From: Xestospongia bergquistia
Lineage: Eukaryota; Porifera; Demospongiae; Haplosclerida; Petrosiidae
Reading direction: 5' to 3'
Assembly: GCA_963965975.1 (NCBI GenBank)
Contig: OZ014421.1
Location: forward strand, 6,065,001-6,129,000
DNA: 64,000 nucleotides
Within the stretch, counting starts at the first letter, position 1, and every line of letters starts with the position of its first letter. Position numbers and translations under genes: made by a program. Below are positions 44,701 to 59,700 of this stretch, one piece after another. The notes under the pieces were generated by a model, which searched no databases, was not told the origin of the DNA, and saw only the letters and a program-made list of their open reading frames with translations.

Positions 44701-47700
44701 TCTTTTACATTGAAGTACTTCTCCGTCAACTGCCTCCCAGATTTTCTTGTATATATGGTACCCTCTCACCACGGATTCATAGGAATAGCTAGCCATACTT
44801 TGTGAAAATCACGCTTGTGTTCTGATACCACACCCATTAATTAAAACTTCACACTCACTAAACACGAACGTTAATACCCACTAAATTTAAATAATAAAGC
44901 AAAATTTTAAAAACACAAAAATTTAAACCCTCGAAAATTTGTACCCTTACAGTAGTTTAAAATGCTCACTTGTTTTGTTATGTTGTATGCGAATACATTT
45001 ATAACTTTGTTAATAGCTATATTCTTAATTCCTTCTATCTTTTGTTTACAGGGCTAAAGAACTCAGCAGTCTCAAAGGTAGAAAATATCTTGATGCTTTG
45101 TGTGTTTATTTCTGGGCTACAACGCCTGTTTTAATATCGATTCTCACATTCACAACTTATGTTGCTATGGGACACAAGCTTACAGCTGCTAAGGTAGGTT
45201 CTTCTCAAGAGAGTATGTAAGTCCATAATATAATGGAATGATTTAATGGCTTGGATATTGTATAGCTGGTCTTATTAAAGAGTCTAATGAGATCAGTGCC
45301 TTTGATATCCTAACTGGTTTTGATGATGATTGTTATCAATGATCATTATCAATGATATAATATTTGTGCAATCAACAATCCCTATTCCTGTATTAATGTA
45401 TTGATGAATAATATAATTATATTTATCAATGCATTTTCAATACTCAGATTGTATTCCACAGTGTTAACAAAGTTAACTAACTATATGTATCTGGCAAGTA
45501 ATTCTGAACATTACGAGTTTGCAAAATGTTGCAAAATTTTTGCCCTTCAATTTAAACAGCAATTAACAATAATTATGCATTTAAATAAACAAGTAAATGT
45601 TAACATCTATGGACTTATGCTGAACATAGCATGTGGCTGGATTTTGTTATGTCATTAAATGGCTGAGAGTGGCCTAACCATTGTTATTAGTATACTGTTT
45701 ATTGGAGAAAGGATTGCTGGATCACTCTCCAAGTATGTTTACAATTCTTCAAAGCCATTTTTGCCATCCCTTCCATCTTCTTCAGCTCTTGTGACTATGG
45801 AGAAAACCTTGACAATAAACGACCAAAAATAAACTTAATACTGGCCCAGCCAATTGGACAATTAATACCGTAAACGTCAAAATTTTCAAGGTAGTTATAT
45901 TTTCGCGGTTGACACAAAACGCAAAAGTTTGAGTGGTGAAAATTTTGACATTTACGGTATATCAAAATGCAAAGTATTTTGATATTATTTTGATTGTCTT
46001 CTACACTAAAGATAGTAAATCTTTCAGATTAATTCATAAAAGAGTGAAAGAATTAGCTGATTATGAATTGAAAGCTGAATTTGTCATTTTTGGTATAGTA
46101 AGCAATCAAGATGATGAATGAGTAATCAGTCAAGAGAGAGAGCTCAGATTGTTACTGATGATTATGAACTTAGATACTTTGAAGTTAAACTTGATAATTT
46201 AGGTACAATATTGGAAATAACTGTGCAGGATGTTCTTAAGAGAAAATATGACAGCAAGAAATGTTAAATGTCTTGGAGGTTTTTGGCATTTTATTGAGGG
46301 TGCTATAAATCAGTATTTTGTTTATAAATCATTACTTAATTGAGTGATTTTAAGAGGTGCTGACTTTATCATTGAGGAAAAGTTGTATTATATTAATTAT
46401 TATAGTTATGTTATCACAAGATAATGTTGATAAAATAGGAGTAGTTACAAATGTCTGTGAATTGTTTTCATGTTTAAAGTATAGCAGCTGTAATATTTAT
46501 ATGTACAAGGTGAATAAGTAATGATAAGAGCAAATTCTACACTCTTTGCATTGTACTCGACAGCCACAATTATTCAGAGATTTTTGTACTGTATTAATAA
46601 TACCTGGAGAAGTTTGTGATGTGACACTCCTTTTTATTTTTAGCACTAGTGTAGTTGAAGAAGGGTTTAAAGCTGTAGTTCATTTGTGTTATCTGTTTAC
46701 TTCATATATCCTGTGATGTAGCTAATAAACAATCAATTAACAGTGTTTTAAGTGATCTGGAATGGCTGGAGCTTAAAGAGGAATATTACATTGATTGTGT
46801 TGTTCCTGTAGTAATGGTTGGCGCAAAATGTGACTGTCCTGATGAAGAGAGAGAAATAAGTTGAGAAAGAGTCAGAGTTATTATGGATGACATGGGATTA
46901 CCTTATATAGAAACTAATCCTCAAAGTGGAGTTGGTGTACAGGTAGTATTTGAGATACTGTTAAGAGAAATGATTGCATCTGAATTGAACACAGTCAAGT
47001 ATGAAACTAATGCTGGTAGTAATCCACGTTATGGGAAATACTATGAAAGAATTGCATTGAAATAATAGTCAATCCTGTTCTATAACTATTTTATATAAAA
47101 AATCTCAGTGTAAATATCATGTTGATAGTTGTTGACAGCATAGTTACTACCTGTAAACAATTTATTAGTCATTGCATCTTGTCACACCATGCACTTCTAT
47201 TGGGCATGTGCCTGACAGTTAGTTTGTTCTCTTGTCACACCACTACCATATATATAGTACATGTCAGTCAGTTAGTTTATTCTCTTGTCACCACTCCTGT
47301 TGGGCACATATCATGTCAGTTAGTTTGTTTAGCTATAATATCATTATTATTCTTAAATAGGATGTTAGAGTGCTCCATATAGCTGATGAGGGTTTACTAT
47401 CTCAACAACCTCACTATAATCAAAGTACTGAAGATATTACCAGGACTATTATAGGCAATATCTAGAATGTCAGTAATAGAACAATGCAATGTAAAAAAAT
47501 GATTGGTTGATTAACCAATATATGGTTGTTATACAGATTGCATGATGTAAACTAGTTACAAAATGTCAGAACTAAAAATGATTATTTTAAAAAAAATAAA
47601 TGGATTTTTGTTTGCAAAACAATCAATTCCATAGTACAATAATAATCAAAACTCTATTGTGTTTACTTTAAGTTTTCATCATGTAACTTGTATAACCAAA

Positions 47701-56700: not shown

Positions 56701-59700
56701 AATTATGGCATTATAAAATAGCTCATTATAATTTTAACTAGTTATTGCTGTACAATGTTCTATCTTTTATGGTAACTATTAACCCATTATCTTTTGCTTA
56801 TATAATTGTTGTGTCTTCTCTTTATAATGTTCAAAATCAGTAGTTACATTGTCTTCTTTAGTTCCAATTATTTTGTTCACTTTCTTTTGTCTTGATTGGA
56901 ATTCCAATCTCTTTGTTCTCTTATTATATTAAGGTTCTCAAACAGTAGGAATATACCCCTAGTAGATAACAACCATTACATACTCAGAACTATCTGTAGA
57001 CAGTACAGGCTCTCTCAACAATGGAAAATATCCTCACCTTCACACCATCATCGATCTTTTAGACTTATCTTCATCACCATGAATTTCTAATGTTGTTCGT
57101 TTCTCACTGCACCAGTGACTGTAGTAATCACTATGATATTTGCCAAAGTATTTACCAGTAGGAAACAAATGTCACTGTTTAATTTTTGCAGTAAGCCTAA
57201 TACTGAGTTACCACAAAGCCAAAAGTACTCTAACTCAATATGTATAAATAACCCATATGTGTACATATGTATACATATATATATATATATGCACACACAC
57301 ACACACACATATATATATAGCAATAAGAAACTAATTTTGGGGAAGACTTTATATATAGACAAGTTCTTATGCTTAAAGATAAATTGTCTGATGATTATTG
57401 TAAACATATGAATTGGGTGTGGCTGCAGTTTATTTAGCTGATATGGCTGAATCACCCAATGCTATTTACAGTATTAATTTGCTAGGAGAAACTACTGTTG
57501 GAAAGACATATTTGCTACTTACTTATATGAATGAGATAGGGCCAGGAAATTCACTACTACCCACCATCGGTTCTGACTTTAGAACAATTAACATTACTTT
57601 ATCAAATGAGCGGAGAATTAAACTTCAAATTTGGGACACAGCTGGGATAACTCGTTTTCGTGCAATGATACCATTTGTATATTATAAAAATCGTCATGGT
57701 TTTCTATTAACCTTTGATATTACTAAGGAAAGATCATTTTATTATGCTTTAAACCAGTGGCTAAAGGAACTTATGGAAAACCATAGATCAGATCCAAGGA
57801 ATGTAACTCCTAATCCTGTTATTTATTTAGTGGGTACTAAATGTGACTTGGAGGAGGAGAGAGAAGTTAGTCAAGAGAGAGCACAAATTGTGGCTGATGA
57901 ATTAGGACTGAGATACATTGAAGTCAGTAGTTATTTAAGATATAATGTAGACCTAGTGTTCCAGACTATAGCTGAAGATATGGATGAAGTGGCATTCACA
58001 AACTGAATTTATTTGCTGTTTTTTTCAGTTAATTGTGCCACTTTATACAAATTGGATATTATCTTTTTATTGTGTTTCATTAGGTAAATTTACAATTAGG
58101 AAATATTGATAGTGCAAGAGAAATAAATTTGAATGTGATTTGCATTGTAAATATAATCTTATTTACTTTACTTGGTTAATAAATATATACCTATTAATTT
58201 AATAAAATATAAATGGTTATTTTGGAATTACAAACAGTTGATGATAATATATGATTATGAGTGGTTTAGAGTTGAAGGTACTCTTGTAGATGATGCCAGT
58301 TGTTCATAAGTTTGAATGACTTGTTGTGTAATTGTCTTAAATACCAAATCAACATTCTGTCCACTAACACTACTGACTTCAAAGTATTTCAGTCCCAACT
58401 CATCAGCCACAATTTGTGCTCTTTCTTGACTGACTTCTCTCTCATTCTTCAAGTCACATTTTGTACCCACTAATACAATAACAGGATGCTTTGGTCCTTT
58501 GGTCCTTATATACTCAAGCCACTTCCGAAATGCTCTGTCGAAGGAATATTCATTTGTGACATCAAAGACAAGTATAAAACCTGGAGCATGTTTAAAATAT
58601 GTTCCTGTGATTATTGCCTCAAATCTTTCTTGTCCAGAAGCATCATAAATATAAGTATCTACTGTTGTGTCCTTTCCAAGGCATGGCTGAATGGTAATTG
58701 TTCTCAAATCAATACAACAAGTTGAAGGTATGCTCACATCAGGAGTTTCTTGACAGTATTTGTACTGTAACCAAGTCTTTCCTACTCCATGATGACCTGT
58801 AATGATGAGTTTGAGTGCCTTGTTGTAGTTGAATTTCCCTGTCTCAGAAAAAGTGTACACTTCTAAAGGATCAGGTCTGTCATATATAGCCATTAAACCA
58901 CACCTTTTTTAATTAACCTGTGTCATATCAGCACTTGGCATTGATTCAGAATCAGTAAATAAACACATTAAATCCTTTGACTACACTTCCTCAGATACAT
59001 CGGCTACAATGCCAAGTTGTTATAAACTTATATTAATACTGTGGTATACAATTTGCAAGTAGCCATGATGTGCTTACATTTATTTCAAATATATGCACTT
59101 TTCCATTTTAGGTTTTCACTAGTTTAGCACTCTTCAATATGTTGATTAGTCCCCTGAATGCCTTTCCGTGGGTACTTAATGGTTTGGTGGAGGCCTGGGT
59201 GTCTTTGAAAAGAGTCCAGGCATTTCTTTCCCTCTCGGAGCTAGATCCTAATGAGTACTATATGATTTACAGCTCATATCAGACTCCTCTTGGTGATAAT
59301 GGTAATGAGTTGATCAATGTGGCTGATGGATGCTTTACTTGGAAGAGAGAAGATTCAGATAATGTCGAAAATAGAAATAGCAAAGTCAAAGAAGAGAACA
59401 TTGAAAATAAAGAAGATGAAGTGAGGACTGATGAAGAATATGAGTGTGTTGAATGGTTACTGAATGGCCTTAATTTGACAGTTAGAAAGGTAAATAAAAT
59501 CATTTAAAATGTTGTTGGAAGTATGCTGTTTTTTTCTCTTAGGGTGAGTTTGTTGGAGTTGTTGGTAAAGTTGGTGCTGGAAAAAGTTCTCTACTGGCTG
59601 CAGTGACAGCTGAAATGAGAAAGAAGTCTGGTCAGGTACAGGAATCTGTCTTTCTGTTTCTTATGTTTATAATCTATATTTCTCCAGGTCTTTGTGGCTG

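What the first reader, a model, noticed from the sequence alone, without database searches (positions are those of the whole stretch)
45194..59111. Cluster of intronless Rab-like GTPases nested in one ABCC10 intron
The 13.9 kb intron holds seven intact single-exon GTPase genes, an eighth with one stop, and four decayed fragments, on both strands. Flanking ABCC10 exons join exactly (AAK|VFTS), so the host gene is not broken. A birth-and-death gene family confined to a host intron is unusual. It could be a fast-evolving lineage-specific signalling or self-defence family, but that is speculation.
Basis: partly seen in the sequence, partly recalled or inferred. Interest (0 to 1): 0.78.

Follow-up and report, generated by a model that had tools for sequence, protein, structure and literature searches.

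The report
Rab-like gene cluster inside an intron
One large intron of a transporter gene in this animal genome, said to be a sponge, holds a small private family of intron-free Rab-like GTPase genes that are copied, partly re-homogenised and lost; the intact ones lack the usual C-terminal lipid anchor site, and nearly all have lost the catalytic glutamine.

Summary
A phase-0 intron of 13,918 nt (45194-59111) in an ABCC/MRP-type transporter gene holds seven open single-exon Ras-fold genes, an eighth with an in-frame TAG, and four decayed pieces, on both strands. Host exons join in frame. Some copies arose by segmental duplication, and among older copies non-synonymous change stays below synonymous change. 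Six of the eight genes share a short G4-to-G5 block whose synonymous sites are much less diverged than their 5' halves, and a dead copy stays 97% identical to its live sister although the DNA between the genes differs at 26 of 192 sites. I read this as ectopic gene conversion; one control test is not clean. The proteins are Rab-like (Rab8/Rab3/Rab27) but have no C-terminal cysteine in 7 of 7, and 7 of 8 lack the catalytic glutamine: probably soluble, slowly hydrolysing Rab mimics, expression untested. Other GTPase arrays exist in this genome and nested genes are common in sponges, so this is a new variant of known kinds.

The parts
45194..59111 (+). host intron, phase 0, of an ABCC/MRP-type transporter gene
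   Evidence: GTAGGT..TTTTAG, AAK|VFTS; continuous alignment to MRP1
41798..45193 (+). host exons 1-7 as I read them (41798-43120, 43319-43408, 43506-43610, 43845-43961, 44048-44173, 44223-44308, 45052-45193)
   Evidence: one open frame, GT..AG introns
59112..60328 (+). host exons 8-12 as I read them (59112-59489, 59543-59635, 59688-59837, 59889-59996, 60169-60328)
   Evidence: one open frame; the first 79 residues of exon 8 match once in the genome
48363..48920 (-). g1, Rab-like GTPase, 185 aa, ends KILY, G3 WDISGHKRF
   Evidence: PF00071 5.1e-43; best PDB Rab8A, then Rab3
50009..50587 (+). g2, Rab-like GTPase, 192 aa, G3 WDLGGDIRF
   Evidence: PF00071 7.9e-35
50900..51493 (+). g3, Rab-like GTPase, 197 aa, G3 WELGGDRRT
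   Evidence: PF00071 4.3e-23
52848..53402 (+). g8, eighth copy with an in-frame TAG and a late TAA
55037..55594 (-). g4, near-identical sister of g1 (7 differences in 558 nt)
55838..56395 (+). g5, Rab-like GTPase, 185 aa, G3 WDTSGHERF (an upstream in-frame ATG at 55787 exists)
   Evidence: PF00071 1.1e-40 for 55829-56395; Rab8A 4.2e-38
57443..58006 (+). g6, Rab-like GTPase, 187 aa, G3 WDTAGITRF
   Evidence: PF00071 3e-39
58255..58893 (-). g7, Rab-like GTPase, 212 aa, the only copy with the catalytic glutamine (YDASGQERF)
   Evidence: PF00071 2.8e-36; Rab27B 1.3e-32
45945..46189 (+). decayed piece, weak
   Evidence: six-frame HMM search
46706..47041 (+). decayed piece, 92% aa identical to the 3' part of g3
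49114..49577 (+). dead copy of g5 (shifted frame, stop, cut short)
49690..49890 (+). decayed 3' piece
47604..49573 (.). segmental duplicate, unit 1 (partner 54443-56292)
   Evidence: two blastn stretches, 83% and 88%
54443..56292 (.). segmental duplicate, unit 2
46714..47101 (+). duplicate of 51139-51535 (92%)
57805..57990 (+). shared G4-G5 block as seen in g6; matches in g1, g4, g5, g7, g8 and the dead g5 copy, no other match found in the genome
53960..54362 (.). dispersed repeat, between the two halves of the duplicated units
   Evidence: 45 matches listed, of which 6 besides itself are near full length at 86-95% identity

Best explanation
One or two intron-free Rab-type genes (Rab8/Rab3/Rab27-like) settled in an intron of an ABCC transporter gene, most likely as retrocopies (inferred). 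They multiplied in place by segmental duplication, and copies now lie on both strands (seen in the sequence). The copies form two subfamilies, {g2,g3} and {g1,g4,g5,g6,g7,g8}. Coding frames are kept by purifying selection (supported by dN<dS and open frames), some copies die (seen), and in the second subfamily a stretch of about 115 nt from G4 to G5 is re-homogenised by ectopic gene conversion while the P-loop/switch part diverges (inferred from synonymous sites). The proteins keep the P-loop and, in 7 of 8, the G4 motif, but the open ones lack a C-terminal prenylation cysteine and 7 of 8 lack the catalytic glutamine. The likeliest activity (inferred) is a soluble, nucleotide-binding, slowly hydrolysing Rab mimic that occupies effectors or regulators of the Rab8/3/27 group in the cytosol, in place of a membrane-cycling switch.
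For: Pfam Ras for 7 of 7 open copies. Best PDB chains Rab8A and Rab3 (g1, g5), Rab27B (g7). Single exon here, whereas a recalled human Rab8A matches another locus in four pieces over about 1.6 kb at 53-78% identity (C12:5557382-5558946), that is, a gene with introns. Duplicated units. pN<pS: g2-g3 p=2.6e-9, g5-g6 5' half p=2.8e-4, g5-g8 whole p=0.0029. Upstream 300 nt: 1 of 28 pairs alike (g1-g4); downstream: g1-g4 and one weak pair. Conversion: NG86 synonymous change is lower in the block than in the 5' half in 14 of 15 subfamily-A pairs (all but g1-g4), while in the 13 pairs with g2 or g3 the ratio is 0.78-1.17. Of 11 of the 28 pairs put to a Fisher test, 6 of 7 subfamily-A pairs drop (e.g. 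g5-g6 0.04 v 0.55, g1-g7 0.26 v 0.79), g5-g8 does not, and 0 of 4 with g2 or g3 do. Dead g5 copy versus g5: pS 0.036, pN 0.029, 13/458 differing in the gene against 26/192 between the genes. g1/g4: 7/558 in the gene, 43/539 and 26/192 in flanks. Motifs and C-termini.
Against: No RNA evidence at all. The codon-identity test is not clean: besides 11 of 15 subfamily-A pairs, g2-g3 and 5 of 6 g3-versus-A pairs also reach p<0.05. Separate trees of 5' half and block do not prove a conflict of topology. Low divergence of g1/g4 and of the dead copy could partly reflect faster-changing flanks or, for the dead copy, a recent death. g1-g4 (p=0.17) and the 5' half of g5-g8 (p=0.085) do not depart significantly from dN=dS. 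A single founder is not shown: g2 and g3 are no closer to g5 than genes on C12 and C4. The parent is unsettled: the best whole-length outside hits are C12, which resembles Rab39 by eye, and C4, which is Rab39. Retrocopy origin is inference; no poly-A or target-site scar was sought. Other lipid routes are not excluded: g1, g3 and g4 have a Cys at position 3 or 4. Loss of glutamine need not mean no hydrolysis (Rap proteins normally lack it; recalled). No structure model was obtained.
Confidence: 0.6

Rival explanations
1. The block is alike because of constraint on the nucleotide sequence or codons (an embedded regulatory or RNA element), and no gene conversion takes place.
For: The block spans conserved G4/G5 motifs; g2-g3 and 5 of 6 g3-versus-A pairs also show more identical codons there.
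Against: Synonymous divergence in the block is about as high as in the 5' half in the 13 pairs with g2 or g3 (ratio 0.78-1.17; 4 of them Fisher-tested, none significant). Rfam finds no family at gathering score in 40000-64000. The dead g5 copy is alike along its aligned coding part.
Confidence: 0.2
2. The cluster is a graveyard: all copies are non-expressed duplicates with no function.
For: One copy with a stop and four fragments; no RNA evidence; no shared upstream sequence in 27 of 28 pairs; g1-g4 not significantly under selection.
Against: Pairs at synonymous divergence near 1 (g2-g3, g5-g6 5' half) are still open, against 0 to 1 of 2000 expected under neutrality at 0.3-1.0 changes per site; pN<pS; P-loop kept in 8 of 8 and G4 in 7 of 8.
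Confidence: 0.15
3. Rapidly evolving decoys or sensors for microbial effectors that attack Rab proteins (a self-defence family).
For: Birth and death, loss of membrane anchor site and of the hydrolysis motif, alike block with diverged switch region. Other Rab-like sets in this genome lost the glutamine too.
Against: No sign of positive selection: 5'-half dN/dS is 0.25-0.81 where measurable; a few 3' tails exceed 1 on few sites. No expression, infection or binding data.
Confidence: 0.12
4. The intron is an artefact: two host genes, or a mis-join in the assembly.
For: The intron is about 19 times longer than the next longest host intron read.
Against: Splice signals, one frame, unbroken alignment to MRP1, no N, exon 8 stretch found once.
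Confidence: 0.03

Closest known systems
Rab8/Rab3/Rab10/Rab27 group of Rab GTPases
   Same: Closest solved sequences for the three copies searched (E 1e-32 to 4e-38); G1 kept, G4 kept in 7 of 8; Rab8 has a large set of metazoan duplications (passage of PMC3425129)
   Different: No C-terminal cysteine in 7 of 7; glutamine of DxxGQ lost in 7 of 8; single exon; 33-42% identity to a recalled human Rab8A
Prenylation-less 'Rab-like' proteins of Tetrahymena (17 genes; PMC2954822, passages)
   Same: Rab G domain without prenylation residues, taken out of the Rab family proper on that ground
   Different: Not described as nested, clustered or glutamine-less in the passages seen
Nested genes of sponges (PMC10282587, passages and Table 1)
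   Same: Genes lying in host introns; glassin is a single-exon example
   Different: No nested tandem family with conversion appears in the passages seen
Tandem multigene families under mixed purifying selection and conversion, e.g. Mnemiopsis photoproteins (PMC3570280, passages)
   Same: Clustered copies, purifying selection plus evidence of recombination between copies
   Different: Copies there are highly alike; here one short block is alike and the rest diverged; nesting is not mentioned in the passages seen
Atypical constitutively active small GTPases (PMC13236570, abstract and passages)
   Same: Sequence changes keep such proteins mostly GTP-bound
   Different: Those named in the passages as constitutively active are mainly Rho-family; here the change is at the glutamine and no C-terminal anchor site is seen

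Membership tests
Ras superfamily small GTPase | G domain with P-loop GxxxxGK[ST] and [NT]KxD | tested here: met
   PF00071 in 7 of 7 open copies; GxxxxGK[ST] in 8 of 8 and [TA]KxD in 7 of 8 (g3 AKCD; g8 TKCE)
Rab GTPase family proper | closest to Rab among solved sequences | tested here: met
   3 of 7 open copies searched: g1, g5, g7 have Rabs as best hits; g2, g3, g4, g6 not searched there
Rab GTPase family proper | C-terminal prenylation cysteine(s) | tested here: not met
   last Cys 44-77 residues from the end in 7 of 7 open copies
Rab GTPase family proper | catalytic glutamine in DxxGQ | tested here: not met
   kept only in g7, 1 of 8
Rab GTPase family proper | GTP hydrolysis and membrane cycling | not testable with these tools
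   bench assay needed
Nested gene cluster | complete genes inside one intron of an intact host gene | tested here: met
   transcription not tested
Birth-and-death family | duplicates, diverged copies and pseudogenes together | tested here: met
Concerted evolution by gene conversion | synonymous sites homogenised between paralogues in a tract | tested here: met
   14 of 15 subfamily-A pairs lower in the block; Fisher test on 7 of those 15: 6 at p<=0.011, g5-g8 not; on 4 of 13 others: 0; but see the unclean codon test
Concerted evolution by gene conversion | conflict of trees between tract and rest | tested here: inconclusive
ABCC10 (host) | orthology to ABCC10 among ABCC members | not tested
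   best PDB chain is MRP1

The most novel reading that the evidence does not exclude
A 'constant/variable' GTPase family: an intron-nested reservoir in which gene conversion keeps the guanine-recognition cassette (G4-G5) uniform while the P-loop/switch half, the surface read by effectors, GEFs and microbial proteins, is free to diversify, giving an animal a changing set of soluble, GTP-held Rab decoys. Several Rab expansions in this genome would have lost the glutamine in parallel (Rab9/7-like 3 of 3 extra copies, Rab39-like on C12 4 of 4 sequences, a Rab-like trio 3 of 3), while the Rab39 on C4, the Rab9 beside the trio (named by eye) and 6 of 7 pieces of a Rab3-like array keep it.
Probability: 0.12. 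Interest if true: 0.8.

Novelty: new variant of a known kind. Interest (0 to 1): 0.46.

Why it matters
If the copies are expressed, this is a private animal set of Rab mimics that broke with both halves of the Rab cycle, hydrolysis and membrane anchoring, and it gives a compact case for asking how a gene family can be born, homogenised and lost inside one intron without harm to its host gene. The parallel loss of glutamine in other Rab sets of the same genome asks for a common cause.

Tried and rejected
Assembly or two-gene artefact: rejected. Chance open frames: rejected. RNA family or tRNA content: none found (Rfam on 40000-64000; ARAGORN on the window). Relatives in viral contigs: 111 stretches matched a pattern, none a relative. 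Prokaryote genomes: 427 stretches, one relative, on a Legionella sp. contig at 38%, not followed because it belongs to the genus of a listed germ and may be an injected effector. Topology conflict between 5' half and block: p-AU 0.028 against g5+g6 in the 5' half, but the block cannot reject g5+g8 (0.186), and the groups were named after seeing the data, so not used as proof. Sponge check by a recalled silicatein motif: 0 matches. Paper searches for a nested tandem family; for sponge Rab expansion; for pseudo-GTPase Rabs. I saw no report of this cluster in those listings, which cover open-licence papers only.
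Full report
Observation. The window is C11:6065001-6129000 of a 146.5 Mb, 21-contig genome. The intron 45194-59111 has GT..AG ends in phase 0 and lies between exons that read AAK|VFTS. I joined twelve host exons in a script: one frame, 11 GT..AG introns, ten of them 49-743 nt and one of 13,918 nt. The joined 959-aa protein aligns with MRP1 without a break over the junction. It is an ABCC/MRP-type transporter; that it is ABCC10 was not tested. A 79-residue stretch of exon 8 is found once in the genome and the window has no N.

Content. tblastn and a six-frame HMM search find 7 open genes, an eighth with TAG, and four decayed pieces. All 7 open ones match Pfam Ras, and the six given to NCBIfam (all but g4) match its small-GTP domain. 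Coding sequence, the eighth included, is 33% of the intron. Best solved relatives are Rab8A (g5, g1) and Rab27B (g7), with Rab3 close behind; g2, g3, g4 and g6 were not searched there.

Confinement. A DNA search with the g6 block gives 7 matches, all in this intron. A protein search with g5 (86 matches) gives seven cluster hits first; then C12:377228 (42%), g2, C4:9787057 (38%), a dead piece and g3. So subfamily A is private to this intron, but g2 and g3 are no nearer to g5 than outside genes, and a single founder is not shown. Short exon-sized pieces elsewhere reach 56% over about 44 residues. C4 is Rab39. Tandem GTPase arrays exist elsewhere: C5 (in pieces, so with introns; one exon tested is Rab3-like), C3:11.03 Mb (single-exon; the one copy tested is Rab9/7-like), C3:10.42 Mb (one copy tested, Rab-like), and repeated matches on C6, C9, C12 and C15. 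So expansion of small GTPases is a habit of this genome. Whether other arrays are nested was not settled.

How it grew. 48049-49573 matches 54723-56292 (88%), 47604-48009 matches 54443-54833 (83%), and 46714-47101 matches 51139-51535 (92%). A dispersed repeat lies at 53960-54362. The other homologies end at the coding sequence: of 28 pairs only g1-g4 share upstream 300 nt, and downstream only g1-g4 and one weak pair, g1-g8.

Selection. Non-synonymous change lies below synonymous change for g2-g3 (0.27 v 0.58, p=2.6e-9), the 5' half of g5-g6 (p=2.8e-4) and g5-g8 as a whole (p=0.0029); not significantly for the 5' half of g5-g8 (p=0.085) or for g1-g4 (p=0.17), and not for the dead copy against g5 (0.029 v 0.036, p=0.75), as expected of a pseudogene. 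Where measurable the 5'-half dN/dS is 0.25-0.81; a few short 3' tails exceed 1, on too few sites to trust.

Conversion. In subfamily A (g1, g4, g5, g6, g7, g8) the G4-G5 block is 84-97% identical to that of g6, on either strand. By NG86 its synonymous change is lower than in the 5' half in 14 of 15 subfamily-A pairs (all but the near-identical g1-g4), while in the 13 pairs with g2 or g3 the ratio is 0.78-1.17. I put 11 of the 28 pairs to a Fisher test: 6 of the 7 subfamily-A pairs chosen show a drop (p 3e-6 to 0.011), g5-g8 does not (p=0.32), and none of the 4 pairs with g2 or g3 does. A run-length permutation on third positions, which does not separate silent from protein-level likeness, flags 13 of 15 subfamily-A pairs at p<=0.0075; of the 13 other pairs only g3-g6 is under 0.05 (p=0.04). 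Against this, a test on codons for identical amino acids flags 11 of 15 subfamily-A pairs but also g2-g3 and 5 of 6 g3-versus-A pairs, though 0 of 6 g2-versus-A pairs, and trees of the two parts do not conflict significantly. The duplicated units add a second line: g1/g4 differ at 7/558 in the gene but at 43/539 and 26/192 in flanks, and the dead g5 copy differs from g5 at 13/458 against 26/192 between the genes. Since one of the latter is dead, present selection cannot explain its likeness; conversion or a recent death can.

What the proteins would do. P-loop kept in 8 of 8, G4 in 7 of 8; C-terminal cysteine in none of 7; catalytic glutamine in g7 alone. By established rules for Rabs (recalled), lack of prenylation predicts a cytosolic protein, and lack of the glutamine predicts slow hydrolysis. 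A review of atypical GTPases describes sequence changes that keep some GTPases GTP-bound (PMC13236570, abstract and passages), and prenylation-less proteins in Tetrahymena were moved from Rab to 'Rab-like' (PMC2954822, passages). I file these as Rab-like and not as Rabs. The mimic or decoy activity is inference.

A wider pattern. In the loci fetched, duplicated Rab sets lost the glutamine repeatedly: Rab9/7-like 3 of 3 extra copies, a Rab-like trio 3 of 3, C12 Rab39-like (by eye) 4 of 4 sequences; it is kept in Rab39, in the Rab9 (by eye) next to the trio, and in 6 of 7 pieces of the C5 array. Of the eight other matches in that scan, five keep it and three, two of them Rap-like by eye, have T. 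Nineteen other loci of the genome were scanned with a motif that misses divergent G3 sites (it missed g2 and g7 in the window, and gave nothing for the five loci L029, L040, L041, L042 and L047), so this is a sample and not a census.

Verdict. Real, well-formed and modestly novel: a nested, intron-free family of anchorless Rab-like GTPases that probably undergoes gene conversion. Expression is the missing fact.

Noticed in passing
34235-35812 (+): Single-exon 525-aa ORF, no Pfam match, rich in hydrophobic stretches by eye; it lies between ORFs that look by eye like exons of a Sec16-type gene, so it may be another nested gene.
   Followed up: partly
13653-17552 (-): Single-exon 1299-aa ORF with no Pfam match.
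   Followed up: partly
L028 (C12:368001-378000): Tandem units of about 2.7 kb, two of them with a 284-aa ORF (the one tested has a NERD domain, PF08378, 8.6e-9) beside glutamine-less Rab39-like fragments; a full-length Rab39-like copy without C-terminal cysteine follows.
   Followed up: partly
L031 (C3:11032001-11042000): A Rab9 (by eye) with three single-exon tandem copies, one tested as Rab9/7-like, that keep a C-terminal Cys but lost the catalytic glutamine.
   Followed up: partly
53960-54362: Dispersed repeat of about 400 nt found on many contigs.
   Followed up: partly
L049: A Legionella sp. contig encodes a protein 38% identical to the family; not opened.
   Followed up: no
62400-64000: Long minisatellite downstream of the host exons read here (seen).
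   Followed up: no
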